Assembly: GCF_029633865.1 (NCBI RefSeq)
Contig: NC_079216.1
Location: forward strand, 20,890,019 to 20,954,018
Length of the DNA: 64,000 nt
From: Lampris incognitus
Lineage: Eukaryota > Chordata > Actinopteri > Lampriformes > Lampridae
Reading direction: 5' to 3'
How positions within the stretch are numbered: position 1 is the stretch's first letter; each line of letters opens with the position of its first letter. Under the pieces are notes generated by a model. It did no database searches and was not told the origin of the DNA. It saw nothing but the letters and a program-made list of their open reading frames with translations. Shown piece after piece: positions 3,478-53,520 of the stretch. The position numbers and the translations under genes are program-made.

Positions 3478-4500
3478 GGCTTTGCTATTGGTTTACCCCA
3501 TTGAGGCTCTGCCTCGGCACCTGAGAAAGATCTTTTTATTCCCCACCCAATTGGGTGGTAGGAGCCACATAGCACTCACCCCTTATAAAACCCCTGTGTC
3601 TCTGCTGCTACTCTTGCTTTTTCCACTCAGCCATCTCAGCTACGGCTCGTCTGTGAGTTTCTTGTCCCCCTCTGGTGTTGCAGTGTTATTATGAAGACTT
3701 CTTCTGTCTTGTACTGCTATGATTGTCACCCCTGGTTGCCCACCAGTCCTGCTTTGTTTGCCTTGGCTGGCAGCAGCAGGAAGCCTTTGAAACCTGCCCT
3801 GCCTGTCTTGCCCTCCCTTTGTGCAGCCGTATTTCAGGGAAACGACTGCTGAATTGGTACCCCATGCAGTGCTCGGTGCAGTGTCTAGGGGGGGGGGGGG
3901 GGCTTGTTTTCAGCTGACTGACAAGTCAGCAGTGTCAAGCCCTCTGCAGGTTGGTACAGTACGGTACAAGACCCTCAGGTGGGGCAATGCTCGACTGTTG
4001 GACTGCTATTGTGGTGCACTATGGTAAGAGACCCTCAGAAGGGGCAGTACTCGACCGTTGGACTGCTGCTGTGTAGGTTGCTGTTTGGCTGGTGTCGGAT
4101 TAGTATCAGTTGGGCCCAGCTGGGAGTACACTCATCCCTAACTGCTTTTGCCTTAGTTGTGAACCAATAGTGAAGCCCATTAGAGGGTGGAGCACATACC
4201 ACATAGAAGGTAGTTACCCTGGATGTAATACCAGTTCTAGAATACATGCATAGCCACCTAACCACAAGCCCAGCTGGCCCCAGTCTTTGTTTCTGAATTT
4301 CAAAGGAGGAGGAGCAGCAGAGATGCAGGAGCTTTGTAGGGGGTGGGTACTATGCAGCTCCTACCATCCAGTTGGGTGCTGAGTACAAAGATCTTTCTCA
4401 GGTGCCAAGGCGGAGCCTTAATGGGGTAGACTAATAGCAAAGTCCGTTAGAGGGCTACGCAGCACTCATAGAACTAGAGTTACATCCAGGATAACTACTA
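3478..4500. mobile_element. Inverted-repeat-bounded element, class unknown
   Basis: The left arm (about 3478-3615: TTTGCTATTGGTTTACCCC, GCACCTGAGAAAGATC, TAGGAGCCACATAG) is matched in reverse complement by about 4310-4450 (GATCTTTCTCAGGTGC, GGGGTAGACTAATAGCAAAG). The arms are diverged. About 850 bases between them have no recognisable transposase, so this looks like a non-autonomous DNA element. Related motifs (TACCCTGGATGTAA near 4215, TACATCCAGGATAA near 4480) suggest a nested or duplicated end. Confidence 0.6.
3953..4072 (+). repeat. Two-copy ~61-bp tandem duplication
   Basis: The block with AAGACCCTCAGGTGGGGCA and GTTGGACTGCTATTG is repeated at once as GAGACCCTCAGAAGGGGCA and GTTGGACTGCTGCTG. 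It lies inside the inverted-repeat element. Confidence 0.65.
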
Positions 4501-6756
4501 TTTTATAGGTGATTCATCCATTGACTCTATGAACCCTTATTTTCTCTCCTCTAATCTTTATTTAAACCTAACAGAGCCAGAGGGTCGCTCCAAAGGTAAA
4601 AAGCTAACAAAAAAAAGAAAAGAAAAGGAAAAGCACAACACATAGTAATGCCAGAATATTCTTAAACTGTGGGCCAAGAAAAAAATGTATAACTCGAGTT
4701 TTAACCGGAGCTGTGTAAAACGCAAAGTTTCATAGAAAAAAAGAGGGGTGTGCAGGGGTATGCACAATCTGATATACAGCTTGTGCGGCATGTTAGTTTA
4801 AGTTTAAAGGAAAAGTAATCCCATGGTAAAAAGACAGAAGTTGGATGTTGATACAAATTAACAATCCTTGGTAATGACTGAAAATAAGGAGCTCATATAT
4901 ATCTGTCTCCAAAAGTATGTTCTTAAGCAAAATTTGATGATTTCATGGGCGCCGTTATTAAAGCTTTTTACCCCCTAGGGAAAGTCTTCTGGACCACTTG
5001 TGTAAATGCTTTGTCATCACACAGGCACAGGCACAGCAACACAGACGGTAAAGCTTAAAGTAACGAGCTCTCAGGTCATTAACTGAACTGTTTTTACATA
5101 GTTGTCCTGCTCTAAAGGACATTGTTAGCCGACTTCATACTCGGTGTCTTTTGTCCCTTCATAACATGTCTGAGGATGTTGACGTCAGCTTGTGCGGTGT
5201 CTTCTGCTTCCTTCAGTATTGAGTCTATGTGGCCGCATGCTGCAAAGAACATGATGGCCCCCTAGTGGCAGAAAAACAGAAGTACAAAATCACCTCACAG
5301 CTTTCTCTTAAATGGTCAATCGCTCCTGAAACGTATTTTATCGACTCTCAAAATTACAAGTTGCCAGTCCAGCATGTATTTATTTTACATTTACTATTTC
5401 TTTTAACATTCTACTTTTTTTATCCCCATTAATCAGACATCTCCATTATGTTTTCTCTCTATTTAAGTTTCACAAAAGTACGCTATCGATGTTTACTTAT
5501 TCATACTGTTTTTTTTATTCTTATTCCTATTTATTTGGTCTTATTCATTTATTGTCTTTACCTTCTCTGTTCTCGTGTCTTTTGGTCTTATTCTCATTTT
5601 GCCTTGTTTGGTTTTATTTCTTTTGTAAAGCACCTTGTATTTATGTTGTTTTAAAAGTATTATTTTTCATAGCAAATTGTTTGGTAAGCTTGACTAATGT
5701 TAACACACTGAGTGGTTGAGGCTTTATTTTCAACGTTGTGATAAATGGAGTCAAATGTAAGGTTTGCTTGACTTCCAGATATGGAGAGAATGTTGCATTT
5801 TTCAATCTGTTATATCAGAAAATTATGGCAATGTGCAGGGTCATTTGACTAGCACTTGTGCTAAAGGCAAGAACCGTCACATCAGCTGTTATTATAGACG
5901 TACTGGACTTGAAAGCCCCTACCGACTGCCGTAGCTGACTCATGATTGTGATTATTTACATAATAAGCCATCAGTAAACTTTGAGGCCAACTCAACTTGC
6001 TGCAGCTGCAACTGCAGACGCAGTGCAGGAGTCTCTGCACCCTCAGTGGCAGCATGTGAGGAAGATCTTGGTCCTGGTAAAAGTATTTCTGGTCACAAAG
6101 TCAGATATTGATCTTTCATTAGTGTTCACTCACCGGAACTGATCAAAATGACACAGGTCGCTGTGTTGTGTCAAGATTTGTGTAGGATTAAGCTAGCTTT
6201 TGTCGTGAAAGCATTTATTGATTGCTTATTTGTCTATAAAGCGGAAGAAGCCATAGTCCTAAAGAAGGACTATGAGGACCTACAGGTAAAGAGGGAGACA
6301 TCAAACTTGCACAAAACTTGGATGTTCCTTGGGAAGGAACTCGAAAACTTAAAGAAAAGCTCGGAAACTCAAAGCTTTTCACTAGTTCAAGTAAGTGGAC
6401 GACACCTGGGTTAGAATTAAATCACAAACAATGCACCAGCTGACCGAAGACAACAGAACACAACACAAAGGAACATAAAAAATACATTACAATAAATGAA
6501 CATCTGAACTTATTTTTGACAGACAACAGCGTGTTTGCCCTCTTCATTTCCTCTATCTTCTTCTTTACATCTCTTGGTTTAAGTAACCCCAAATTATAAA
6601 GGAACACTGTAGTTTGCCTGTTTGTTGGTAATAAGGTCATTTTGAAATAAAATCACGTGAGATGTATTAAGAGATGCAGAGGTCGTCACTCAGTCTTTCC
6701 TGAAATGTCCAGGTCTTTGCTCAGTTTCATGGCCATACTGAACCCTGTAATAATAG
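4501..6756. other. Long non-coding stretch, largely unidentified
   Basis: No confident gene. About 5620-5665 (TAAAGCACCTTGTATTTATG) resembles the 3' end of an L2-type LINE or its SINE partner. A short ORF at 6148-6414 includes a hydrophilic run (KAEEAIVLKKDYEDLQVK) that could be a remnant of coding sequence, but it was not identified and has no splice support. Confidence 0.3.
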
Positions 6757-7122
6757 TGTAGCGGCCCTGTGCAGTTGGGAGTTGTGGATCAGCGGAGTCG
6801 GTCTAGCGTCTTCCTGCTCTTGCCAATCACGGGAATGCATGTTATGTCGGGCAGTGTGCGTGCCAGTGGTTGGGTTGGGTTGGGTTGGGTTGGGTTGGGT
6901 TGGGTTGGGTTGGGTTGGGTTGGGTTGGGGGGTCTGGCCCGCTGGGTGCCTATTGGCTCTGTTGTGTGTTTTTCAAAGGCGGTGGGTTTTTTTGTTTGTT
7001 TTCGTTTTAGGTCTGTCTCTGCTGTTTGCTCTGGAGCGAGACATTGCTGCACGAGAGGTTTAATAAACCCACCTATGCGAGAAACCAACTGTTGTCTCCG
7101 TTTTTCTAAGTGAAACATTACA
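6757..7122 (+). mobile_element. Probable solo LTR or 5' LTR with adjacent primer-binding-like site
   Basis: It starts TGTAGCGG and ends ATTACA, contains a polyadenylation-like AATAAA near 7061, and is followed at about 7124-7135 by CGTGTCAGAAG, close to the tRNA-Leu-type primer site used by the short LTR family in this window. No internal coding region follows: sequence passes within about 70 bases into a TRIM copy. It is probably a remnant of a larger LTR retrotransposon. Confidence 0.5.
6868..6932 (+). repeat. (TTGGG)n pentanucleotide array
   Basis: About 13 tandem copies of TTGGG inside the LTR-like segment. The G-triplets could form G-quadruplexes on the plus strand. It is not the vertebrate telomere unit TTAGGG. 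Confidence 0.95.
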
Positions 7123-7186: not shown

Positions 7187-7827
7187 TTAGTGTCAGTTAT
7201 TTGACTGGTTAGCGTAGTCGCCCGTGGTCCGGGCTACCCAGGTCGATTCCCAGCTGCCTCCTGAATTCGCTGCATTGGTGTCAGGAGCGGGATGGTGAGA
7301 CCACGAGGCCATCGGAAGCGCGTGCGCCCAGAGGCGTGAGGGAGTTGATATGCTGGAGCACGCCCCAGATAGCAGACAATCTGGGGCACTTTTGGTACTT
7401 CCGGCTCAGTTATGGCACTGGTAACTGTTGTGTGGGCCAGACATGGCCCAAATGCAATGAACCGGGCTTGACTTGGGTTACAGCACATACTATGTGGGCC
7501 AGATGTGGGCCATATAAGGTGGATCTGTGGCTGAGCTGAGGCAGCCACACTCACTCTGAGTCATTCAAGGCCAAATGTGGGCCGTAAGGTAACTGCAGAT
7601 GTGGGCCATATTTGGGCCAAAGTTTCTTTGCTATCTGGGCGCGGGGGCGCGCTTCCCGAAGGAAAGAGGTAGTGTAACGACCATGAATGAGTAGACTCGC
7701 TAGCCGGTTGTCCAACGGGTCAGACCCTTTGTAGTTGAATGGTTAGCGCAGTCGCCCGTGGTGCAAGCGACGCGGGTTCGCGTCCCGACTGCAGCAGATT
7801 CTCGGCTGCCTCCTTGAATTCGCTACA
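7187..7827 (+). mobile_element. TRIM-like short LTR element, copy 1 (5' LTR truncated, MITE inside)
   Basis: The partial 5' LTR ends GAATTCGCTGCA at 7274. It is followed by a primer-site relative (TTGGTGTCAGGAGCGGGAT, 7275-7293), a short non-coding body, a purine-rich GGAAAGAGGTAG and the 3' LTR at 7673-7827 (155 bp, TGTAACG to GCTACA). The LTR holds a tRNA-like unit with TTCGCGTCCCG. The body is interrupted by a MITE at 7374-7639. There is no coding capacity. Confidence 0.75.
7374..7639. mobile_element. 266-bp MITE inside TRIM copy 1
   Basis: The ends are short inverted repeats (CCCAGATAGCA / TGCTATCTGGG) flanked by CGC on both sides (7371-7373, 7640-7642). Uninterrupted TRIM copies read straight through this point with one CGC. 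The interior repeats GTGGGCC words and has no ORF of interest. The superfamily is not certain; a 3-bp duplication would fit PIF/Harbinger-like elements. Confidence 0.7.
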
Positions 7828-8460
7828 ATAGAATAGGTAGTTAAGTTGCTGTATAAATTCACTCTGTAGGTCATATACATACCCTGTAATAATGGAGTAA
7901 GTACCCAGTGTTTAGAAATAACTACAGTATAAATTGTTTGTAAGATCCCAAATATTACCCCCATATTCCATAACTTCACATCTTGTTCCCCATATATGTG
8001 CACCATATATGTACTGGTACGTACTGTACTGGTACAGCAATAGTACTAGTATATTAAACTGTAACCACAGCGTAACGACGCTGTGTGCTAGTTATCAGAT
8101 TTTTAGGCGAAACTGGGACGAAACAGCCTGAATCAGCCATCGCGTGTTTGGTTTATTTGGTAACACAACCAGTCTCATACGCCTACTCAAAAATGTCTTT
8201 GTGATCTGGCCAAGCATATTTATCTTTGATTTGATATTGTGGAGGCTGAGGTGGGATGATGGGGAGGCAAGCATATATGGGGTGCGCAAGCTCCTCAACC
8301 CCCGCACAGAGGCGCCACACGCGCGCGCGCACACACGCGCTGCATAAACGATAAACGCACCGGTTTATTTCGTTTGCTGTAACGTGCTGATCCATCAGTC
8401 GATATGGGCTCCTTAGCATTTCTCTTTAACCCCGCCCGCCCCATCTTTTCTCTTTTCTCC
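7828..8460. other. Sequence upstream of galnt18 exon 1
   Basis: No gene recognised. AT-rich up to about 8260, then increasingly CpG-rich with a short (CG/CA) run at 8318-8340. It probably contains distal promoter sequence of galnt18; no specific element can be assigned. Confidence 0.35.
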
Positions 8461-11293: not shown

Positions 11294-11544
11294 TAAGGCC
11301 ATCGGAAGCTCATGCGCCCAGAGGCGTGAAGGAGCTGATATGCTTAAGCGCGGGGACGCGCTTCCCGAAGGAGTGGGGTAGTGTAACGTGCATGGATAAG
11401 TAGACACGTTGGTCCTTGACTAACGGGTCGGACCCTTTAGTCGACTGGTTAACATTGTCGCTTGCGGAGTGGGAGACACGGGTTGTGGCGGTTCTCTCCC
11501 GGCTGTGGCGGTTCTCGGACTGCCCCCGAATTCGCTACAATATA

Positions 11545-11818
11545 AATCCATCTTATCTGAACCGTTTATCCTGCTCTCAGGGTTGCGGGGATGCTGGAGC
11601 CTATCCCAGCAGTCATTGGGCGGCAGGCGGGGAGACACCCTGGACGGGCCGCCAGGACATCACAGGGCCGACACACACACACACACACACTTTCACATTC
11701 ATACCTAGGGTCAATTCAGTACGGCTGATTCACCTGACTTAACGTGTCTTTGAACTGTGGGAGGAAACCGGAGCCCCTGGAGGGAAACCACGCAGACACG
11801 GGGAGAATATGCAAACTT
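11545..11818 (-). repeat. Fish interspersed repeat (3' part), minus strand
   Basis: In reverse complement it shows the tail of the repeat at 2513-2935 (AATGACTGCTGGGATAGGC, GGTTTCCTCC, CCCCGTGTCTGCGTGG) with a short CA run. The head is missing: it stops at about 11818 next to a CA/TA microsatellite. Confidence 0.8.
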
Positions 11819-11838
11819 CTATAATAACATAAAATATT

Positions 11839-11855
11839 ATATATATATATACACA

Positions 11856-11913
<58 letters not shown>

Positions 11914-12142
11914 CACATACACATACACATAATACACACACACACACATATATATGTGTGTGTGTGTATGTATGTATGTGTGTGTGTGTGTTTATATATG
12001 TGTGTGTGTATGTGTGTATATATAAATACTTGACTAACTGGATTATTTTGCTCCTTTCATGTGGAGCACTTTCCCTACCGTTGAGTGTTTCTTTTAACAA
12101 AGTTATATATATATATATATATATATATATAACTTTGTTAAA

Positions 12143-25873: not shown

Positions 25874-25925
25874 CTGGTGACCCCGACGTCGGTTTTCGGA
25901 TAAGTTTTCTGAAACCACACACATT

Positions 25926-26618
25926 ATGGCTACGAACGCCGTTGCAATTAAACTGCCGGAGTTTTGGGAGTCTTCCGCGGCTACATGGTTCGCGCAGGCT
26001 GAGGCGCAGTTCGCGCTCAGAGACATAACAGCAGACGAGACCAGGTACTACTACGTAGTGGCAGCGCTGGGGGGCGCTACGGCTTCCAGGATAAGCGGTT
26101 TCATAACCAACCCACCGGCCGATGGTAAATACGCCGCACTTAAACATCTCCTCCTTGAAACTTTTGAACTGTCAGCAACGGAGAGAGCACGTCGCCTCTT
26201 CGCAATTCAGGGCTTGGGAGATGGCAAACCATCGGAGCTAATGAGCAGGATGTTAAACCTACTGGGTCAAGAAAAGCCATGTTTCCTGTTTATGGAGCTG
26301 TTTCTGCGCAACATGCCGCCCCACGTCCAGACTGGGCTCGCTAACTCCACCATCACTGATCCCCGTGAGCTGGCAAAGGAGGCTGACCGATTCTTCGTCG
26401 CTACACAACGTTCCTCCCATGCCGGGGTGCTGGCTCCTACCTTCACTGGCCCCCCGCCGACATCGCGGGCGTGGCCCGACGGTGGCGCCACAGCATCAGA
26501 CCGCTACAAGCCCTCTGGACTCTGTATGTACCACGCTCGATTTGGTGCGAAAGCTAAACGGTGCCGTTCCCCCTGCAACTACAGGCCGACGGGAAACGAG
26601 AGGGCCAACACTCAGTAG
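25926..26618 (+). CDS. gag: Gypsy gag (nucleocapsid-type polyprotein)
   Basis: 230 residues, starting 52 bases after the LTR. Gag packages element RNA into cytoplasmic particles. The first ~130 residues form a capsid-like domain (LPEFWESSAATWFAQAEAQF, then DPRELAKEADRFF). Near the C-terminus a single CHCC finger is visible, C-x2-H-x9-C-x3-C (CMYHARFGAKAKRCRSPC), rather than the usual CCHC knuckle; this is a known mark of CsRn1-type elements. The frame is intact. It overlaps the start of pol (pol lies in the -1 frame), so pol would need -1 frameshifting; the exact slip site was not determined. Confidence 0.85.
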   Translation: MATNAVAIKLPEFWESSAATWFAQAEAQFALRDITADETRYYYVVAALGGATASRISGFITNPPADGKYAALKHLLLETFELSATERARRLFAIQGLGDGKPSELMSRMLNLLGQEKPCFLFMELFLRNMPPHVQTGLANSTITDPRELAKEADRFFVATQRSSHAGVLAPTFTGPPPTSRAWPDGGATASDRYKPSGLCMYHARFGAKAKRCRSPCNYRPTGNERANTQ

Positions 26619-26848
26619 TGGCCATGAGTGTTGGCGATACGAGCAGGCTACTCTTCATCCTCGACACCATCTCCGGTCGGCGATTTCTTTGTGACACGGG
26701 CGCACAGAGAAGCGTGCTCCCTGCTACTGACGTCGACATCATGGGCGGGGAGCGGGGCCCCCAGTTGGCGACGGCTGACGGCAGCCCTATCCACACCTAC
26801 GGCGTGCGGTCTGTAGAACTGTGTTTTGGTGGACAACGTTTCACGTAG
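26561..26848 (+). pseudogene. pol: Gypsy pol, protease part, ended by an in-frame stop
   Basis: This frame is -1 relative to gag. It includes the aspartic protease active-site triad as DTGA (GAC at 26693) within LCDTGAQRSVLP, and ends at TAG 26846-26848. The RT-containing frame resumes in the same phase immediately after, so a single stop codon separates protease from RT. The element is otherwise young, so this lesion is likely recent or stop-suppressed (the latter is speculation). Confidence 0.8.
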
Positions 26849-26857
26849 GAGTTCGTC

Positions 26858-29782
26858 ATGGCCAATGTAACGCTTCCCCTCCTCGGAGCTGATTTTTTGT
26901 GCGCTTACGGTTTGCTAGTGGACATTCAGAACAGCCGTCTGGTCGATGCCTTAACCTTCTCCTCCTTCGCATGTACGCGGAGGGAAGCGGCCTATGCAGG
27001 TCTAGCCAACTCTCTCTCAGAGGCAGACAAGTTCACCCGCCTCCTCGCTGAGTTCCCTGACCTCACCCAGCCTACCTTCTCTGCACCCACCGCTAAGCAT
27101 GGGGTGGAGCATCACATTGCTACGAAGGGGCCCCCGGTCTACGCCAGAGCCAGGCGTCTCGACCCCGCCAAACTCGCCATTGCCAAGTCTGAGTTCGAGC
27201 ACCTGGAACGCATGGGGATCATCCGCCGCTCTGACAGCCCGTGGGCGTCCCCACTCCACATCGTCGCTAAGCCTGATGGAGGTTGGCGCCCATGCGGGGA
27301 CTACCGCCGACTAAATGACGCCACCACGCCTGACCGCTATCCTGTCCCGCATATCCAGGACTTTTCTGCAAACCTGTCTGGCAAATGCGTCTTCTCAAAA
27401 GTCGACCTGGTCCGTGGTTATCATCAAGTTCCCGTGCACCCCTCAGACATCCCCAAGACAGCGGTGACAACCCCATTCGGCCTATTTGAATTCCTACGAA
27501 TGCCATTTGGACTCAAAAACGCGGCCCAGTCCTTTCAGCGGCTGATGGATTCAGTGCTCCGTGGCCTTCCTTTCATCTTCGTCTATTTGGACGACATACT
27601 CATCGCCAGCGCCTCCGAGGAAGAACACCTGTCCCATCTTCATGCCCTCTTCACACGCCTCAGCCAGCATGGGCTGATCGTCAACCCGGCGAAGTGCCGG
27701 TTCGGGCTGACAGCCATTGATTTCCTCGGGCACCGCATCACTGGGGACGGGGCAGTCCCCCTGCCCTCAAAGGTGGAAGCGGTGGCGGCCTTTCCGCGCC
27801 CCCAAACAGCTCGTGCGCTCAGGGAGTTCATCGGGATGGTGACATTCTACCACCGCTTCATTCCTCGAGCCGCCTTTATCATCCGGCCACTGTACGAGGC
27901 GCTGAAAGGCATGTCCCCCAACCAGGCGGTCGACTGGACAGCAGAGCGGGACCGTGCGTTCACCGAGACTAAAGCTGCGCTCTCCCAGGCTACCCTGCTA
28001 GCGCATCCTTCACCTACAGCGCCTATTTCCATAACCACGGATGCATCGGACTATGCTGTTGGTGCGGTTCACGAACAGTGGGTGGGGGGGGCTTGGCAGC
28101 CTTTGGCCTTTTTCAGTCGCCAGCTTACACCCCGAGAGCGCAAGTATAGTACTTTTGACAGGGAACTCCTCGGTCTCTGGCTCGCCGTCCGGCATTTCCG
28201 TTTCCTGCTAGAGGGCCGCGAGTTTACTGCGTACGTGGACCACAAGCCCCTCACGTTTGCCATGTCCAAGACGGCCGAGCCATGGTCCGCTCGCCAGCAG
28301 CGACAACTCTCCTACATTTCGGAATTCACTACCGACATCCAGCACGTCGCTGGTAAGTCTAACCAGGTAGCTGACTGCCTGTCTAGGGCAGTGATTGGAG
28401 CGGTCCACCTAGGCCTTGACTATGCACAGATGGCTGCTGACCAGGCCACGGACCCGAGCATCCTCCGTCTCCGGGCCTCCGACACGGGGCTCCGCCTGCA
28501 GGACGTTCCTTTCAGCGACACAGGTGTCACCCTCCTGTGTGACGTCTCCACAGGACAGCCCAGGCCCATCGTCCCGCACAGCTGGAGACGCCCCGTATTT
28601 GAAGCTGTGCACGGCCTCTCTCATCCAGGCGGTAAGCCATCCGTGCGCCTGACCTCTGCTAAGTTTGTGTGGGAGGGACTTAAGAGAGACGTGAAAGCGT
28701 GGGCCGACTCGTGTGTTGCCTGTCAGCGGGCTAAGATACACCGCCACATTAAGGCGCCCCTGGAACGCTTCGCAGTGCCGGAGAGACGATTTGACCATGT
28801 CCACGTCGACCTGGTTGGTCCCCTACCCCCCTCCCATGGGTTCACCTACCTCTTCACTGTGGTGGACAGGACTACGCGCTGGCCTGAAGCTGTTCCCCTG
28901 GCATCCACGACGTCTGCTGATGTGGCCCGGGCTTTTATTGGGTCGTGGGTCTCACGTTTCGGTACGCCTTCCGACCTTTCATCCGACCGTGGGCCACAGT
29001 TTACCTCAGAGCTATGGAATGCTGTGGGTGAGGCTCTGGGCGTCAAGCTTCATCGCACTACCGCCTACCACCCTCAGGCGAACGGCCTATGTGAGCGCTT
29101 CCACCGGTCCATGAAGGCTGCGCTTCGGGCTACTCTCAAGGACTGCAACTGGGTTGACAAGCTCCCATGGGTCATGCTGGGCCTGCGGACCGCCCCGAAG
29201 GAAGACCTACAAGCCTCCTCTGCGGAGCTGGTGTATGGCACGCCGCTGCGAGTCCCAGGCGATTTCATGCCCAATGCAACGCGTCCCTGGTCAGCTGTGG
29301 ACCAACGAGCCTCCTTGCTGGACGGGGTCAGAGCTTTCACACCCGTCCCTACCGCCCAATACGGCGCTCCGGTGTCCCAGGTGCCCCCAGGTCTGCAGTC
29401 AGCGGACTACGTGTTCATCCGTCACGACGCACACCGCCCCCCTCTGCAACCCCCTTATGACGGCCCCTTCCGCGTCCTGGAACGGGGAACTAAGCACCTG
29501 GTGGTGGATTTTGGGGGCACGGCCGAGCATGTTTCAGTGGACCGAGTTAAACCCGCACACCTGGACTTGACGCAGCCGTTGGAGTTAGCCCAACCTCCTC
29601 GTCGCGGTCGTCCCCCGGCTCCGCCTCCTCCCCCCGTGGAGGCCCGAGCTGCCTCTTCTGCTCCTCAGGCCGACCTCCACAGGCCCGCGTCAATGCCTCC
29701 CACAGACACTCCGGCCCCTGTTATCCGGAGCCGCCGGGGACGGCCTGTCGTCCACCCGCGCCTGCCTGACTTCGATTACTAG
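26858..29782 (+). CDS. pol: Gypsy pol: reverse transcriptase, RNase H, integrase
   Basis: 974 residues from the first ATG after the in-frame stop. RT spans about residues 120-300 with catalytic YLDD at 243-246 (27584). RNase H follows (TTDASD, Asp395 at 28040). The integrase has an HHCC finger (H585, H589, C619, C622) and a catalytic D651, D710, E746 with the D,D-35-E spacing ([22 protein letters not shown]). The C-terminal ~150 residues are Pro-rich and end [10 protein letters not shown]; no chromodomain is obvious. All catalytic residues are present and the frame is open to the stop 22 bases before the 3' LTR. The protein makes element cDNA in particles and inserts it into chromosomes. Expression of this part is uncertain because of the upstream stop. 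Confidence 0.9.
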
Positions 29783-40275: not shown

Positions 40276-42120
40276 TCACATGCACGAATCACAGTATGCA
40301 GTTGTTTGAGTGTGCTCCCTGCAGATGTATTTTTTACAAGTGTGGCAAGTTGTGCTGGTTTTTCTGTCCTTGTTGGAAGGGCAGGACTGGCACCTCTTTC
40401 TCTTGCTGCCACTGGCATTCTCTGGTTCAGTCCTAGTGGAGGTTGCTGATGTGGTTGCAGCCTGCAGCTCTCTCACCAAGTTGGCAGAGCCAGGAGTTCG
40501 GGGAACCGACTGACGTTGTTCAATGTGGGGATTCACCAGAGCTCTCCCCAGCTCCTGAAGAAAGAGCCTCCTCTTGTTGAACTTGCCGTTGTTCCACCCA
40601 GGATTTATTTCAGTTCACACCACGAACGCACTGGAGGCTGAGACATCAAGAATGTTATAAAAGAAAGCCAATGGCCACCGGGCCGTCTTCCTTTGGCAAG
40701 TGTACGTGCCAGTGACCTTGTCGAGGTTGTCGACTCCGCCTTTGTTCCTGTTGTAGTCCAGGATAATGTTTGGCTTTTTGTCCTCCCTACTGCTCACAGC
40801 AGCATTCTTGTGGAGGGTGGACATCATGACGACATTTGTCGTTTTCTTTGGACAGTATGACACTGTTGTGGTGGTCTCCGTAAATGCAAACTTCGAGGAG
40901 AGAGGGGCTCTGTCCTTTGTGTCTAGCAGTGCAGAAGGAAGCTCAGGTTTATTCTTCCTGACTTTCCTACCATGGTCAGTTTTTTCCTCAGCAGTTCTTG
41001 GCCGAGGGCATAAGATGTGAAGAAGTTATCACAGGTGATGTTGTGCCCTCGAAGCCCTTGTGTCATGTTCAGCACCACCCGCATGCCTTGATTTTTCTCT
41101 GCCACTCCACTTGCAGATTTTCCGGTGTATACTTGCATGTTCCATGCATATAGCTGGTCCTGGCATCGCACGCTGCCCAGATTTTAATCCCGCATTTCCC
41201 AGGTTTGCTTGGGATATACTGCCTGAAGGGACAGCGGCCTCTGAACGGGACTAGTCACTCATCTACAGTGACCTCTGGCCCTGGATTGTAGACGCATGGC
41301 AAGCGTTCCACCCACTTGTCCCAAACCTCCCTAATGGGAGCAAGTTTGTCATGAGCATGGCGAGCAACTCTGGTTTCCCGATTGTCAAAGCGAATGACTC
41401 TTGACAAAACATGGAAGATCTGAAGTGACATGGTCGCACAAAAAATATTCCAGCCTGTCTCAGCATCCCATAGGCTGGCAGTAGCCTCATTATTGGATCT
41501 GTAAGGCAAGGCAATACAAGGCAGGTTTATTTGTCTGCCACATTTCAACAACAAGGGCAAAAGAAACAAATTATAAAAGGACATTTGAGTTCATAAGAGA
41601 ATAAAATTACAATGCAGAATACACACCTGTACATGCTAGCAAGAAGCAACAGCCCAAAGTAAGCATCCAGATAGGTTTTGTCTATTTTCTTCCAACTGTT
41701 GCTAAACACTCTTTTCTCTTCCAGGTTCATCATCTCAATCAAGATAGTGTGGATAGTCTGTGGTAAGAACAGCTCAAATGCTGTCTTTATATCTTGGACA
41801 TCTGACACTGCAAATCTAGTGGGCCCAGGGGTCATTCTGATGATGTTCTGAACTTGTGCTCGGCCTTTGGTTTCATAAGGGATCTTGGACCATGCCATCT
41901 TGCCATTCCTTGACATGAAGACCTCCTGTTGTTCTCCCTCATCCAGGCCTACGTCCTCATCAGATGTGTCTTCATCATGTTCAGGCACATACTCCACATC
42001 ATCTTCATCCTCAGACACATCTTCTTCAATTTCAGCCTGATCTCTCTCCCCCAAAGCCTGACCTCCCTCCTCAAAGATGCGATCAAGAGCCTCACGGGCA
42101 GTGAAAAATCTTTTGCTCAT
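40276..42120 (-). pseudogene. piggyBac transposase, two exons, inactivated
   Basis: piggyBac (PGBD-type) transposases excise precisely at TTAA. Exon 1 (42120-41627) has an acidic N-terminus (EEDVSEDEDDVEYVPEH) and the start of the catalytic core. Exon 2 starts at 41498 with SNNEATASLWDAETG, then IFHVLSRVIRFDNRE, EVTVDE (catalytic Asp region), CPFRQYIPSKPGK and TCDNFFTSY. A Cys/His-rich C-terminal finger (CQSCPSNKD, CHTCKKYICREH) ends at 40276. Lesions: in-frame stops at 41255-41257 and near 40613, and frame changes near 41150 and 40970. It matches the family in length and domain order. It is a transposon gene, not a domesticated PGBD gene, because TTAA-bounded ends are still present. Confidence 0.9.
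41499..41626 (-). other. 128-bp spliceosomal intron in the piggyBac transposase
   Basis: On the minus strand the donor AG|GTGTGTATT and acceptor TGCCTTACAG|A join the two coding parts in one frame exactly at a conserved point of the core. The intron has a pyrimidine-rich tail. Confidence 0.85.
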
Positions 42121-42731
42121 TGTGAAATCGACAGATACGGCTGAATGAAACTCAAATAACCTTGGCAGAGATATTTATAGAAGTTTATGCGAGACAATTT
42201 GTGCAATGTTGCTCATGCCACGCCCCCCACTAGATGATCAAAGCCGACACTGTACTGCGAGAAAATAATTGTTCCCGTGGAGGGAGGGGGGTGTGTTCAG
42301 GTTCAAGTTTAATTTCAGGGTCAGTGTCCATATTCTGTGAGAAAGGTTGAGTTCCCGTGGGAGGAGGGGTGCCAGAGGGATTGGGAGTACAAGTGCATAC
42401 TGCGAGAAAAGAATTGCTCCCATGGAGGAAGGGGGTGGGGGTGGGGTGTCTAAAGTAAAAAATGAATCTTGATTAAGCCAAATTTGACCCAGAGTTACCC
42501 ACAACATTTCAATGCACTGCTGGGTCTTCCCAGACCCGAACACCAAATGATACCCTTTTTTTTTCAGAGACCTTCAGAATTGGCTAAAATGGTCAAAATC
42601 GGTTTTGTAGTGTTTATATAGCTGTTGTGGAGGATATCATGATGCCTTGTTCCAATAAAAAAAAAACTCGATGGTAATTATTATATAATTTTAACTTGAA
42701 ATGGGTCATGGCAGACCCGAACACAACATAA

Positions 42732-46879: not shown

Positions 46880-47777
46880 TAATGATTTCTGGAATGTGCA
46901 GCTTTTCAGAGGCAGCTCTATCAACAAAAATTGTGACAGGCAGAGAGACAGTAACCGGTAGAAAGACAATAAAGCGGGCTCTGTTAGTTAACTCTGTGGA
47001 CAACCACATCAAGTTCACCAGGGAGAAAGTGAAAAATGACAGGTTAACCTTCTTAGACTGTGGAATTGCAGTTGGTGACGGGGGACATGTGATGTTGATG
47101 TAAACCAACACATATTGATTGGTACTTAAGGTTTGACTCATCAGCCACTGGAGCACAAACTAAGAGTAATCAGGACGCTGCACCACCGAGCTGACAATGT
47201 CCCCACTGACACAGCGGCCGGGGAAGGGGAGAAATCTCACATTAAACAGGTCCTGGTTAAGTGTGTTTATCCTAACTGGGCGTTTGCTAAAGCCAGCAAG
47301 ACGCCCAAACAGTGCACCAGCCAATCGAAGAGAGGAGAAGAACAACAGCTGCCTAAGCGTAAACCAGTGGTGATTCCGTATGTGGCGGGAATGTCGGAAC
47401 AGTTGAGACGTGCATTTTCCAAACACCGCATCTCAGCTGCGTTTAAACCCCAAAACACACTGGGCCAGAAATTGGTCCAGCCCAAGGATCGGGTCCCCCC
47501 GCACAAACAGAACAATAAAATGTACGCTGTTAAGTGCCAGGAGGATTGCTGTGACTTGTACATTGGGAAAACCAAACAGACGCTGGCCAAGAGGATGACA
47601 CAACACAGAAGAGCTAACGCGTCAGGCCAGGACTCCACACCCATCTACAGACCAGTGGCCACTCTTTCAGGGAGAATGTGTACATCCTTGATAGGGAGGA
47701 ACGCTGGTTTGAACAAAGAGGCCATCTATGTGAAGAGGGAACAACCATCCCTGAACCGAGGGGGGGGGGGGTGCTAA
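46880..47777 (+). pseudogene. Penelope RT end plus GIY-YIG endonuclease
   Basis: Penelope-like elements combine a telomerase-like RT with a C-terminal GIY-YIG nuclease that nicks the target. The region 46882-47103 keeps HIKFTREKVKN and RLTFLD, the last RT motifs. The 214-codon frame at 47133-47777 runs through PLEHKLRVIRTLHHRADNVP, a basic linker, RKPVVIPYVAGMSEQLRR, then the nuclease (MYAVKCQEDCCDLYIGKTKQ, KRMTQHRRA), ending EQPSLNRGGG. The two parts are in different frames, and the stretch between the nuclease motif and its end is disrupted. The catalytic RT core is missing. It is a dead, 5'-truncated copy. Confidence 0.85.
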
Positions 47778-48264: not shown

Positions 48265-48269
48265 GCAAC

Positions 48270-48789
48270 TGTTACGTTCCCCGTTAAAGGCCCAGGGGAT
48301 GAGGGGAAGTAACAAAGAAAATGAAAGTGTCCCGGGGGAATAAGAAAGGTGGGAGGCGGAACCAGGTGTAAAAACAAACATTTATTAATAAAAACTAAAA
48401 ATAAGTCAATATATACACAACAAAAAGGGCAACTGAAGAAGCTGGCTCTTACCAGGCTTAGATAACAAAAACTCAGGTCAGACCAAAAAGAAAGAAACAA
48501 GAACAATAACACAGCTTTCACCCTCCTTCTCAAGGAGTATTGAGTATTGACACAAGAGCTCGCTCTCTGGTTGCCAGCAATGGCCCACTGGCCGCCGCCC
48601 CCCGCCCCTCCCTCTGGCTGCCAACAATGGCCCACTGGCACTGTTGGGCGTCTCTCTCCAAGGCTTATCCACAGCTGATGAGGGATTGGAATCACCTGGG
48701 CTCACCCAGCAGCTCCAAAGGAGGTGGGCATTACCTGGAGAGGGAAAATTACACACAGACATACAACACATGGCACTAGGGCCGTAACA
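48270..48789 (-). repeat. 3' LTR of the Bre1-carrying element
   Basis: 520 bp. On the plus strand it reads TGTTACGTTCCC to GGGCCGTAACA. It differs from the other LTR by substitutions and small indels (for example near 48300-48320 and 48535-48600). Confidence 0.9.
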
Positions 48790-49169
48790 CCCCCTCCCAT
48801 AAAAACAAACCCTAAGTTTGTATACAAGAGAGTAATCCTCTTCAACAATTGACACCATTACTACTTACCTCTTGCGAGTATGCATAGTGGAAAAATTCTG
48901 TCTTCTAAGTTTGCATACCCTGTTGCATGGTAATAGGGCAGCCATTCCACCCATGGGACAGAGCATCAGCCTCCAGCTTGTCAGCTCCTTTAGTTCCGCT
49001 TGAGCCTGGTCCCTGGCCTGCGTGAGGTCCTGCGTTAACCACTCACTGGCTAGGTAATGCTTATCCCTGGTATCCTCACAGTGCCTCTGCCACTCCAGGG
49101 CTCTTTGGACACACCTTTGGTCAACAGCTTTCTCTCACTCCAATCTTGTACACACCTGCTGCCCATATC

Positions 49170-49694
49170 TTTCTGTCTCACCTCTGCTTTTCTCTAGCTC
49201 CCTCACCACCTGCAGCTGTACACCCACCTGTCTTTTGAGAGTGAGCAGTTGGTCGGCCAGCTCTTCCTTTTCTTTTTTGGGAAGCTTGTGGATTTGGTTG
49301 GACTTGATCCGCTCACTCAGTTTTTAGTTGGCATCGTCCTTCTCCCTGAGCTGTTGCATCAGTCGGATGTTTTGCTCTTGCATGTCCTCAAATGCCTGGC
49401 CTGTAAAATCCATCTCGCTGAGTAAGGCATCCTCCTCCTGTTTCGCTATTGAAAGCTTGTTGAGGATGTCGGTCTGCCCCTCTACAGAACGAATCTTCCT
49501 CAGGGCCTCTTCGTCAGCCATTTTCTTGCCTTCCCTTCACTCCCTCTCTTCCAGGTCCTTAAGCCTCTGCTCCCCTGCCTTGGTCTTCTCAGCCGCCATG
49601 AGCTGGACTTTGTCCCTCTGCTTCTTGGGTGCTGAGCGGAGCGGTACATGTCAAACAGCAGCTTCACCTCCCGCTGGGACTTCTGCACAAACAA
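49170..49694 (-). pseudogene. Captured RNF20/RNF40 (Bre1 E3 ligase) coiled-coil segment
   Basis: Bre1 proteins (RNF20/RNF40) are nuclear E3 ligases that monoubiquitinate histone H2B; their long coiled coils precede a C-terminal RING. The minus strand shows in order [88 protein letters not shown] and [16 protein letters not shown], which follow the vertebrate protein colinearly as I recall it. About 165 residues are encoded with no intron, as expected of a copied mRNA. In-frame stops (49537-49539 and 49324-49326) and a frame change near 49640 disable this copy. The RING and N-terminus are absent. From memory the match is closer to RNF20 than RNF40; an alignment is needed to decide. Confidence 0.8.
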
Positions 49695-49699
49695 TCTTG

Positions 49700-50114
49700 A
49701 ACTGCTCCAAGCTGTTTCCTCTGTTGATTCGGCAGCTCCAAACGAAGCTTCTCTGCCTCAACCTGCTTTGCATGGCACTGGTGTGTGAGGTCAGTGACGG
49801 CGGACTCGAGGTGTGCAACTTTCACCTCCTGCTTCTGGGGCTGGTTTAGGTCCTTCCCTATTCTCGCTCATCTGGGTCATGACCGCCCGCAAACTGCGGT
49901 TCTGCCGCTTGCGTTTTAATGCCTCACAGAAGTTTCTCCACTTTAGGATTTGGAGGGGTACTGACATGTGAAGCTTGGGGAACATGCGGTTAAGCATTTC
50001 GTGAGTCGCCGCCACAGGGGGAGGAAATATTACACGGCAACAAACGCTTTTGTCTGTGAGCGCCAATTCGTCTGCCAACACCGTAGCCTGATGCAGAGCG
50101 GACACTTTTTTCAT
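49700..50114 (-). pseudogene. Chimeric ORF region between gag-like and Bre1-like parts
   Basis: The minus-strand frame at 49791-50114 contains VSALHQATVLADELALTDKS, similar to a segment of fish Gypsy gag capsid regions, then an unidentified FPKLHMSVPLQILKWRNF stretch. Next to it (about 49700-49850) is hydrophilic coiled-coil-like sequence (HLESAVTDLTHQCHAKQVEA) of unknown origin. Confidence 0.45.
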
Positions 50115-50271
50115 ACTGCACCTCTAGCTGTCGAATTCTAATAGCGGTCTCTGCCTCCAATTTCTTCAATTCCAACTCCCTGCGAAGCTGGAATTCTCTT
50201 CCCTTTTCCAACTGGGGGCGAGCAAGATGGACTTTTAACTGCACATCCAGCTTAGAACCATGGGTAGACAC
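49990..50271 (-). pseudogene. Gag-like N-terminal fragment of the LTR element
   Basis: 93 codons. KVHLARPQLEKGREFQLRRE and ELKKLEAETAIRIRQLEVQ are typical of the charged helical N-terminus of fish Gypsy gag proteins. The frame then leaves the family sequence, consistent with internal deletion. It is the most 5' coding segment after the primer site. Confidence 0.6.
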
Positions 50272-50792
50272 GTGAATCCAAAGTAGCCATAGCTAAGAGA
50301 ACAAACAACAAACACCATACACGGGCTGAATGTTAATTAGCCTCCGCTACAGCCATTCGACCTCACACTTTCAAAGTCACGTCCACCGGTGGCAAATTAC
50401 GGCAAACTGGAAATATAAGTATGGTTAGCCTTACAAACAAACTTGCCTGGTTGGAACTTCACCTATTTGTCTTCTCTGAGCGGCTTTAAAGGCTGAACTT
50501 TGGCGGCCTGAGCCCCGAAATGCGTACCCCCGCCAGGGAATGTTGTCCACGCCCAGGATTACTCCTAAAAGAAGAAAGGCAAAATAACAAGAGTGTCCGA
50601 TGGAAAGACTGATCACAGCTCAACTGGACCCTCCCCTATTCTAACCAGGGAAGCTGTCTGAAACATCAGACAAATTTCAGTACTCACCGCACCCACCACC
50701 AGAGACAAGCTGCACACAGCAACGACTTATACACACACGGAATCCACCTCCGAACCCATAAAAAAAAAAAAAATCCCGGACAAACCCCCAAT
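50272..50792 (-). other. 5' leader of the LTR element, with primer-binding site
   Basis: Non-coding leader between the 5' LTR and the gag-like ORF. It begins at the LTR border with the tRNA-Pro-like primer site and has an A-run at 50761-50773 on the plus strand. Confidence 0.6.
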
Positions 50793-51294
50793 TGTTACGT
50801 TCCCCGTTAAAAGGTCCAGGGGACGCAACAAAGAAAATAAGTGTCCCGGGAGCAAAAGAAAGGTGGGAGGCGGAACCAGGTGTAAAAACAAACAGATTTA
50901 TTAACAAAAACTAACCATAAGTCAATATATACAACAAAAAGGGTAACTGAAGAAGCTGGCTCTTAACTAACCAGGCTTAGATAACAAAAACTCAGATCAG
51001 ACCAAAAAGAAAGAAACAAGAAAAATAACACAGCTTTCACCCTCCTTCTCAAGGAGTACTGACACAAGAGCTCGCTCTCTGGTTGCCAGCAATGGCTCAC
51101 TGGCCATCTCGCTCTGGCTGCCAACAATGGCCCACTGGCACTGTTGGGCGTCTCTCTCCAAGACTTATCCCCAGTTTATGAGGGATTGGAATCACCTGGG
51201 CTCACCCAGCAGCTCCACAGGAGGCGGGGCATTACTTGGAGAGGGAAAATTACACCGAGACATACAACACACGGCACTAGCTAGGGCCGTAACA
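50793..51294 (-). repeat. 5' LTR of the Bre1-carrying element
   Basis: 502 bp, TGTTACGTTCCC to GGGCCGTAACA on the plus strand; clearly related to 48270-48789 but not identical. Confidence 0.9.
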
Positions 51295-51299
51295 GCAAC

Positions 51300-51640: not shown

Positions 51641-51839
51641 TAATGTGGGAAGTGGGGCTGCACCTCCTCCTAGTGGTGGGTGCAGACCCCCCCCCCCCAG
51701 TAGTGGCAGGTGGCTGTGTAACAGCTTAGACCCAACAGTATGCCTAACTTTTCATAACGCACTAATGTAAAAAAAACAAACAAACAAAACATACCTTTAT
51801 TTTAAACAGTGGCAAATCATTCATTGCTCACTCTCTCTC

Positions 51840-53520
51840 TCCAGCAATATGTGAGGCCTCAATATCTATATTGATCAAGAAAGAAAAGCACCCGCTTGAT
51901 TGTGCATCTTACCAACCTATCTCGCTCCTTAATACTGATGTGAAGATACTGACTAAAGCCTTAGCTCACCGTTTTAAGACAGTTCTTCCAGTTATAATTC
52001 CCCCAGACCAGACTGAATTTGCCAAAAAGAGGCACTCTTTTTTTTAATCTTTACCGTCTTTTTAACATTCTTTATTCTAAGCCTTCTCAGACCCCAAAGG
52101 TGGTGGTATCATTTGACGTGGAAAAGGCTTTCGATTGACTTTTGATTGGTTTTTGGTTGAGTGGGACTACCTTATTTTTACTTTTTCAAAAATCTGGTTT
52201 TGGTGATAGTTTTATATCCTGGGTCAGATTGGGTAGCATGGTGGCCCAGTGGTTAGTGCTTTCACCTCACAGCAGGAATGTCCTGGGTTTGAACCCTGGG
52301 GTTGCCCATCCTTGGAGGTCATCCCAGGTCATCCTCTCTGTGGAGTTTGCATGCTTTTGCTGTGTCTGTGGTGGGTTTTCTCTGGGTGCTCTGGTTTTCC
52401 CCCACCATCAAAAAGACATGCATGTTCGGGTTAATACTCCTGTCTGTGCCCCTGATCGAGGCATGGCAAGAAGAACTGGAGTTGGTCCGCGGGTGCTGCA
52501 CAGCAGCTGCCCACTGCTCCTAGCTACACAGCTAGGATGGGTTAAATGCAGAGAGGAATTTCCCCAAGGCAAGTAATATAATATATAACTTATTGTGCGC
52601 GTCCCTGAAGGCCTCAATATGTACAAATGATATAATCTCTTCATCTTTCCAGTTATACAGAGGAACTAGATGAGGGTGCCCTTTAAGCCCTCTGCTCTTT
52701 AAGATAGGAATAGAACCTCTGGCCATAGCCCTGCGTAGCAACCACAACATCCATAATATTTATAGAGACCAGGAACATAAGCAATCACTTTTTGCTGATG
52801 ACCTGTTGGTTATCGTGTCTGACTCCTTAACTTCCATCCATAGGATCTTGACATTATTGAAGGATTTTGGAAAATTTTCCAGATATAAACTCAGATTACA
52901 TAAAAGTGAGCTAATCCTAGTTAACTCCGCAGCAGATAAATGTCCGCTTAGCTCCCTTCTGTTAAAAATTTCATCTAATAAATTGACTTATCTTTGCATC
53001 ATTGTAACACGGAGATATAATAATTGTTTTAAACGTAACTTACTAACTCTGCTAGGCCGTATTAAACTTGATCTGGAATTCTGGTCTGGGCTCCCTCCAT
53101 CTCTTGTAGGTCATATTAATACTTTTGGCAAAATACCACTTGGACCCCTAAAAAATCAAAGGGAGAGTGATATGGAAATGTTCATGATGGAGGAAACTTG
53201 GGATCTAGTCATTAAGAGGATACACTCCTCTTCTTTATGCACAAGACATGGTGTAATCCAGTTGAAAGTAGTGCACTGCCTTCATTGGTGCAAAGAGAAA
53301 ATGGCTAAAATTAACCCAGATTTAGACCCAACATGTGACAGGTGCAAAGAAGCCACTGCCAGTCTCTTACATATATGTATGTTCTGGATCTGCCCAAAAC
53401 TGACTCAGTTCTGGCATTCCCTCTTTGAGGCCTTGGCTGCTGTTTTACATTTCCCACTTGAATCTTCTCCTCTGAGTGCTGGCAAACGTGTTGGCCTACA
53501 CCACTCTATTAGCTAGGAGA
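51840..53520 (+). pseudogene. L1-type fish LINE reverse transcriptase, disrupted
   Basis: The plus strand encodes RT motifs of fish L1-type elements: ASYQPISLLNTDVKILTKAL and PPDQTEFAKKRHS (51900-52040), VVSFDVEKAFD-like sequence (52095-52135), GFGDSFISWVRL (52199-52235), then after the inserted repeat GTRXGCPL-like and the SLFADDLLV-like catalytic motif near 52785-52810, and 52806-53516 (LTLLKDFGKFSRYKLRLHKS, RIKLDLEFWSGLPPSLVG, then a C-terminal C-x2-C...H finger, PTCDRCKEATASLLHI). There are multiple stops and deletions. Confidence 0.85.
52228..52590 (+). repeat. Fish interspersed repeat, alternative-tail type, inside the LINE
   Basis: Head GGGTAGCATGGTGGCCCAGT and GGTTTGAACCCTGGGG; from about 52410 the tail (CATCAAAAAGACATGC, GGTCCGCGGGTGCTGC, CCTAGCTACACAGCTAGG) is like 61553-61890, not like 2513-2935. 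It splits the RT frame of the LINE. Confidence 0.85.

What the first reader, a model, noticed from the sequence alone, without database searches (positions are those of the whole stretch)
48270..51294. LTR element that has captured a host Bre1 (RNF20/RNF40) mRNA segment
Seen: direct LTRs (520 and 502 bp), a 5-bp GCAAC duplication, a tRNA-Pro-like primer site and a polypurine tract define a minus-strand LTR element with no RT, protease or integrase. Between a gag-like fragment and the 3' LTR is an intronless, colinear run of about 165 residues matching the coiled coil of RNF20/RNF40 ([26 protein letters not shown]). Known: retroviruses and retrotransposons can transduce host mRNA. Inference: this is a gag-host-gene chimera mobilised in trans. 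A histone H2B ubiquitin ligase fragment in a fish LTR element is, to my knowledge, undescribed.
Basis: partly seen in the sequence, partly recalled or inferred. Interest (0 to 1): 0.9.

Follow-up and report, generated by a model that had tools for sequence, protein, structure and literature searches.

The report
Fish retrotransposon carrying two host genes
A family of parasitic DNA elements in a fish genome picked up spliced pieces of two ordinary host genes, CCDC57 and RNF20, fused them to its own gag gene, and copied the combination to dozens of places in the genome.

Summary
Window 48270-51294 (minus strand) is an LTR element: LTRs of 502 and 520 nt, a 5-bp target duplication, no pol found. 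It holds spliced RNF20 sequence, 85-93% identical to host exons with introns missing, between pieces of a second spliced host gene, CCDC57.

It is not a one-off. The host genome has at least 40 places with the RNF20 piece, 58 counting the adjoining CCDC57 piece; copies read in detail share breakpoints. Two elements carry gag plus CCDC57 without RNF20, so CCDC57 was probably captured first. Joins between host pieces show 7-9 shared bases, as expected for template switching. In 12 of 21 copies CCDC57 and RNF20 form one open frame, in RNF20's own frame; 3 include the gag start. LTR pairs differ by 1-12%, so the family moved repeatedly. Selection on the fusion is suggestive only; no autonomous partner was identified.

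Closest precedents: maize Bs1 and gene-capturing crocodilian ERVs. New variant of a known kind.

The parts
51295..51299 (.). target-site duplication GCAAC, one side
50793..51294 (-). 5' LTR, 502 nt, TG...CA
50773..50790 (-). primer binding site resembling tRNA-Pro
   Evidence: read in the sequence; tRNA identity recalled
50100..50290 (-). gag remnant, N-terminal coiled coil; ATG at 50290
   Evidence: sequence; same piece at the start of open frames in L018, L025, L026; no database hit
49916..50099 (-). gag remnant next to the nucleocapsid; the zinc-knuckle motif seen in sister copies is missing here
49717..49909 (-). CCDC57 block A: host exon parts 6746-6824, 11432-11490 and 11738-11802 of L046+L047; 84-92% identical; a host intron removed at 11490/11738
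49192..49722 (-). RNF20 (BRE1A) segment: about positions 78-642 of the spliced host stretch, four introns absent (a 17-nt deletion covers the first join); coiled coil only, no RING
48984..49200 (-). CCDC57 block B: host exon parts 276-307, 531-688 and 1048-1072, introns removed; upstream of block A in the host gene but downstream of it here; overlaps the RNF20 end by shared bases at the join
48790..48983 (-). 3' internal piece with polypurine tract next to the LTR; possible pol remnant (lead only)
   Evidence: Pfam negative
48270..48789 (-). 3' LTR, 520 nt
48265..48269 (.). target-site duplication GCAAC, other side

Best explanation
This is one decayed copy of a non-autonomous LTR retrotransposon family that captured spliced mRNA of two host genes in succession by template switching during reverse transcription. 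Step 1: a gag-bearing element took up CCDC57 mRNA in two blocks whose order is swapped relative to the gene. Step 2: in a descendant, the reverse transcriptase left the element inside CCDC57, copied about 565 nt of RNF20 mRNA, and returned to the element, so RNF20 now lies between the two CCDC57 blocks. Step 3: a form with the downstream part removed (LTR - gag - CCDC57 - RNF20 - LTR) spread to dozens of places. Many copies still have an open Gag-CCDC57-RNF20 or CCDC57-RNF20 coiled-coil frame. Shown: the anatomy, splicing, shared junctions, multiple copies, elements with CCDC57 only, differing LTR ages and open frames. Inferred: the order of events, template switching as the mechanism, and mobilisation by pol proteins of another element.
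For: Splicing: sister copies cross 3 RNF20 splice joins in the common form, and the window's longer form reaches over a fourth; CCDC57 joins also fall at host exon borders. One capture for the copies read: of 21 (window + 20), 15 start at exactly host position 78 and 3 more at 79-81; the other three start at 69, 133 (the window, which has a deletion there) and 157. Of the 40 genome places, 37 end at the same short-form edge, query base 368-388. Multiple copies: 40 places scored of 90 candidates for RNF20, 40 of 95 for CCDC57 block A; 58 distinct places together, window included, a lower bound. They lie on 18 contigs for RNF20. LTR matches on both sides in 11 of 20 fetched loci, downstream only in 8, none in 1. 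LTR-pair K2P 0.011-0.122 in 11 pairs. Elements without RNF20: L048 and L049, same swapped CCDC57 junction in both. Shared bases at joins between the present host sequences: CCDC57/RNF20 7 nt, RNF20/CCDC57 8 nt, CCDC57/CCDC57 9 nt (read by eye); random breakpoints give 7 nt or more in about 0.2%. In the window copy all host pieces lie in sense with gag, and the longest A run at the five joins examined is 4, so no poly(A) tail.
Against: No autonomous partner was found; the search meant to find one did not complete. Only 20 of the 39 other RNF20 places, plus two CCDC57-only places, were read in detail. L009 does not fit the simple series: about 370 nt lie between CCDC57 and RNF20, a second zinc-knuckle motif and a second, undeleted CCDC57 block follow RNF20, and no LTR was found within the fetched 9.5 kb; I read it as a recombinant. 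L028 lacks CCDC57, and L016 has an extra reversed scrap of block A. An exact 5-bp duplication was found at only 2 of 11 LTR pairs besides the window; several of those pairs are incomplete, or the 5' LTR is preceded by a purine tract. The window copy is the long form but groups with short forms in a weakly supported tree. The join from RNF20 to the 3' piece in the short form shows only about 3-4 shared bases (by eye).
Confidence: 0.9

Rival explanations
1. Two processed pseudogenes (LINE-made retrocopies of CCDC57 and RNF20) landed by chance inside one LTR element.
For: LINE-type reverse transcriptase fragments lie next to the element, and retrocopies occur in fish genomes, which the authors suggest are mainly LINE1-made (PMC3136929, passages).
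Against: No poly(A) at the five joins examined in the window, no 3' ends of the mRNAs, the same junctions in many copies with their own LTRs, and shared bases at the joins.
Confidence: 0.03
2. The element inserted once and the locus was then spread by DNA-level duplication, not retrotransposition.
For: L014 and L015 lie about 58 kb apart on one contig and are nearly identical in the RNF20 segment, so some local duplication is likely. Some LTRs are arranged in tandem.
Against: The 40 RNF20 places lie on 18 contigs. LTR-pair divergence differs from 0.011 to 0.122, and two further copies have their own target duplications that differ from the window's. Flanks of the copies were not compared with each other.
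Confidence: 0.05
3. The host pieces are neutral passengers: the fusion protein has no role and frames stay open only because the family is young. (This concerns function and does not exclude the best explanation.)
For: omega over the 12 open copies is 0.65 with an interval reaching 1.04; the window copy and 8 other copies of the 21 have no open CCDC57-RNF20 frame; changes private to one copy have N:S 108:32, close to the neutral 3.25:1.
Against: Changes shared by the young group have N:S 13:9, and with those shared by nearly all copies 17:14 (Fisher 0.11 and 0.015 against private; the second includes host-lineage changes). 3 of 4 shared indels keep frame against 10 of 23 private ones. Gag, CCDC57 and RNF20 are in one frame in three copies.
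Confidence: 0.6

Closest known systems
Maize Bs1 retrotransposon
   Same: An LTR element with segments of several different host genes (three; PMC13317346 section 5; PMC5408686 passages).
   Different: Plant element with plant genes; here two vertebrate genes, with elements carrying only the first gene still present and a large family of copies in one genome.
LTR-mediated retrocopies of animals (Tan and coworkers, as described in PMC5408686, passages)
   Same: mRNA pieces captured by template switching at short shared sequences; LTR-mediated retrocopies reported in zebrafish among others.
   Different: I could not read the original paper (my look-up was not held). Here two genes were taken in sequence and the chimera itself became a multicopy, moving family.
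Crocodilian ERVs with captured KIT-ligand or nectin3 mRNA (PMC4299795, passages)
   Same: Vertebrate LTR elements with captured host mRNA, in several copies.
   Different: Those are retroviruses with one captured gene per lineage and ORFs reported under purifying selection; here fragments of two genes, coiled coils only, fused to a reduced gag.
Acutely transforming retroviruses with two captured genes (recalled, no call)
   Same: Gag-host fusion with two host genes in a defective element that needs a helper.
   Different: Exogenous viruses selected for transformation; here a germline retrotransposon family with no pol or env found.

Membership tests
LTR retrotransposon | Paired LTRs with TG...CA ends and a short target-site duplication | tested here: met
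   window; exact duplication also at 2 of 11 sister LTR pairs
LTR retrotransposon | Primer site after the 5' LTR and polypurine tract before the 3' LTR | tested here: met
   tRNA identity recalled
LTR retrotransposon | Multiple copies with independent LTR ages | tested here: met
Autonomous Ty3/Gypsy element | Protease, reverse transcriptase, RNase H and integrase encoded | tested here: not met
   none found in the window copy; of the sister loci only L009, L010, L048, L049 were tested with one Gypsy pol: a weak RT-like hit near L009, none in the others at E 0.001
Ty3/Gypsy (by gag or LTR) | Gag and LTR related to a known Gypsy lineage | tested here: inconclusive
   weak zinc-knuckle matches in L048; database search with the window gag piece empty; resemblance to fish Gypsy gag is recalled
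Host-gene-capturing LTR element (Bs1-like) | Intronless host gene segments between LTR-element parts, matching spliced mRNA | tested here: met
Host-gene-capturing LTR element (Bs1-like) | Segments from more than one host gene | tested here: met
Host-gene-capturing LTR element (Bs1-like) | Chimeric product transcribed and translated | not testable with these tools
   open frames only
RNF20/RNF40 E3 ligase | RING finger | tested here: not met
   the segment ends at position 642 of the spliced host stretch, before the exons that match the RING end of the protein; no Pfam RING hit in the pieces scanned

The most novel reading that the evidence does not exclude
The family depends on its fusion protein. 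A reduced Gag, with its capsid part apparently lost but N-terminal coil and zinc knuckle kept, gained new oligomerisation and possibly centrosome-directed coils from CCDC57 and RNF20 (protein roles recalled). Selection has kept this Gag-CCDC57-RNF20 frame in the mobile lineage because it helps the element bind its own RNA and join another element's particles. This would be a transposon that built a new working protein from two host genes while spreading.
Probability: 0.25. Interest if true: 0.88.

Novelty: new variant of a known kind. Interest (0 to 1): 0.7.

Why it matters
Gene capture by LTR elements is usually seen as an end product (my impression from the papers seen). Here one genome holds the two host genes, elements with the first captured gene, elements with both, and a young expanded form, so the order and the exact template jumps can be read directly. 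It also offers a test of whether host coiled coils can take over part of Gag's job in a non-autonomous vertebrate retrotransposon. Fragments of a histone H2B ubiquitin ligase and of a centrosomal protein (functions recalled) in dozens of mobile copies could also confuse gene annotation of rnf20 and ccdc57 in this fish.

Tried and rejected
Single RNF20 capture: rejected once CCDC57 was found on both sides. One-off capture close to the time of insertion: suggested by only a small excess of amino-acid changes (14 of 129 sites against 8.2 expected, P 0.036), rejected when the genome search showed many copies. Left edge of the genome hits as a sign of a shared capture point: dropped, because it falls at the window's own 17-nt deletion; the capture point rests. 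Back-spliced circular CCDC57 RNA as the source of the swapped order: considered; the join (11930 to 210 in L046+L047) lies inside exons, not at their edges, so rejected. A frameshift-aware aligner of my own was too permissive for coiled coils; 12 shuffled controls reached 125 against 288, and I did not use its gag or block A alignments as evidence. CCDC57 block A part 1 is weak on its own by profile (E 0.078, level with an unrelated hit at 0.094) but is supported at DNA level against the host gene. Viral contig scans found nothing. Protein database: among the 120 listed hits of 211, none carries more than 3 of the five-letter words of the CCDC57 part, all from one short AQAELKE-like run, so no predicted chimera was seen there. 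A possible pol end motif near 48974 had no Pfam support. Literature: the listings showed no paper on RNF20 or CCDC57 in LTR elements (searches list two papers each that hold the words in other contexts); one search was about retroviruses with two genes. Most subscription papers are not held.

Full report
What was checked first. On the minus strand of 48270-51294 there are two LTRs (502 and 520 nt, 27 differences in 489 aligned bases, K2P 0.057), the same five bases outside both ends, a primer site and a purine tract, with 2003 nt between the LTRs. No pol domain was found in the 12 distinct reading-frame pieces given to Pfam, and the Gypsy pol encoded elsewhere in this window has no significant match inside the element. 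Two frames match human BRE1A at 4.5e-26 and 1.9e-13, and fish RNF20 proteins in a large database reach 4.7e-59.

Second gene. The frame just after the RNF20 match gave four database hits at or below 0.001 from 22 candidates, all fish CCDC57 (best 1.4e-14). CCDC57 also matches before the RNF20 part (1.3e-10 for one of the four proteins). A CCDC57 profile against 2069 six-frame pieces of the window has its four best hits all inside this stretch; the fourth (0.078) is not significant on its own and is about level with the fifth, which lies elsewhere (0.094). In the host's own ccdc57 gene (contig C22) the window pieces match exon parts at 84-92% identity, and joins fall at exon borders with GT...AG beside them where I printed them.

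Spliced origin. Gene models in the database with retained introns first pointed to exon borders in the captured part. The host rnf20 gene then settled it: exons of 118, 150, 213 and 126 nt plus an upstream exon, with introns of 518, 1502, 235 and 569 bp, absent from the element. In the window copy the first join falls in a 17-nt deletion. The best sister copy (L011) is 94.3% identical to the spliced host sequence over 437 nt across three joins.

A family. The RNF20 piece matches 40 scored places of 90 candidates in the 1.48-Gb host genome, window included; CCDC57 block A matches 40 of 95; 22 of these are neighbours, giving 58 distinct places. The tool calls such counts lower bounds. I fetched 20 of the 39 other RNF20 places. 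In 18 of 20, CCDC57 block A lies directly upstream of RNF20; in L009 about 370 nt lie between, and L028 lacks block A. LTR matches lie on both sides in 11, on the downstream side only in 8, and in none for L009. Of the 21 copies read (window + 20), 18 end RNF20 at host position 510-514, and the short form passes straight into the 3' piece. The window and L010 reach 642 and continue into CCDC57 block B; L009 reaches 624.

Elements without RNF20. Two further loci, L048 and L049, have gag parts, CCDC57 in long spliced form (host 6746-6957, 7741-7949, about 11388-11490, 11739-11930), then CCDC57 from further upstream in the gene (210-307, about 523-688), then the 3' piece and an LTR, with no RNF20 match. 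The swapped order therefore exists without RNF20, and both share the same swap point. In the window and L010 the CCDC57 sequence between host positions 11802 and 276 is replaced by RNF20. The simplest order is CCDC57 first, RNF20 second, then loss of the downstream part in the expanded form. L009 carries RNF20 followed by a second zinc-knuckle motif and a second, undeleted CCDC57 block; I read it as a recombinant of the two kinds.

Mechanism. At the three joins between host pieces the two templates, as they are in the host today, share 7, 8 and 9 bases (read by eye). For random breakpoints in the same sequences, 7 or more occurs in 0.16-0.20% and 9 or more in about 0.01-0.02%. The join of RNF20 to the 3' piece in the short form has only about 3-4. 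With sense orientation, no poly(A) at the five joins examined in the window and internal mRNA pieces, this fits template switching by an LTR-type reverse transcriptase, as described for LTR-mediated retrocopies (PMC5408686, passages). It remains an inference.

Activity and decay. LTR pairs of 11 sister copies differ by K2P 0.011-0.122, so insertions span a long period and the youngest are recent. An exact 5-bp duplication was found at 2 of these 11 (L010, L017). A tree of the RNF20 segment has L009 and L010 near the base and a young group of seven copies on a long stem; many inner nodes have low support, and the window's long form falls among short forms.

Is the fusion used? In 12 of 21 copies one open frame covers most of CCDC57 block A and RNF20 in RNF20's own frame; in 3 it also includes the gag start (L018, L025, L026), and one of these stops early within RNF20. 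Among those 12 copies omega is 0.56 for RNF20 (0.40-1.00), 0.90 for CCDC57 (0.51-1.90) and 0.65 for both parts (0.49-1.04) by a simple method that ignores transition bias and so leans low; the copies were also chosen for being open. Changes private to one copy have N:S 108:32, as expected without selection; changes shared by the young group 13:9 (Fisher 0.11 against private); with those shared by nearly all copies 17:14 (0.015, but host-lineage changes are included; a slightly different rule counts the latter 5:4 instead of 4:5). Shared indels keep frame in 3 of 4, private ones in 10 of 23. I call this suggestive, not shown. The window copy itself is broken by stops and frame shifts.

Comparison. 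Maize Bs1 took segments of three host genes (PMC13317346, section 5). Crocodilian ERVs took KIT-ligand or nectin3 mRNA (PMC4299795, passages). LTR-mediated retrocopies are reported for zebrafish (PMC5408686, passages). So capture by LTR elements is known. What I did not see in the listings and passages of the papers searched is RNF20 or CCDC57 captured this way, or a vertebrate family with two successive captures and surviving one-gene elements. The ligase RING is not included, so no ubiquitin ligase activity is expected.

Noticed in passing
window 25881-29782 +: A separate Gypsy element with long open frames: a 245-aa frame (Pfam DUF7041, probably gag) and a 977-aa pol frame with RT, RNase H and integrase domains.
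   Followed up: partly
window 47130-47774 +: Frame with a weak GIY-YIG match (E 0.00063, below cut-off), resembling a Penelope-like element; the LTR element may have inserted next to or into it (resemblance recalled).
   Followed up: no
window 51766-53513 +: Two frames with reverse transcriptase matches (RVT_1), one below cut-off, beside the LTR element; LINE type is my reading.
   Followed up: no
window 41548-42174 -: Fragment matching DDE_Tnp_1_7 (piggyBac-like, recalled) just at the cut-off.
   Followed up: no
L011, L018, L019, L020: The 5' LTR is preceded by the purine-tract piece, as if LTRs were in tandem, and the purine-tract unit is repeated before many 3' LTRs.
   Followed up: no
L009 3313-3657 (reverse-complement coordinates): An RT-like stretch (25% identity to the window's Gypsy pol, E 2.6e-5) lies just upstream of the gag piece in this odd copy; possibly a lead to the helper element.
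   Followed up: partly
L048 and L049: Longer gag than in the RNF20 family: about 470-540 nt lie between the two gag pieces, probably a capsid part that the RNF20 family lost.
   Followed up: partly
L016 about 4067-4116 (element orientation): A 50-nt scrap of CCDC57 block A lies reversed just before the normal block.
   Followed up: no
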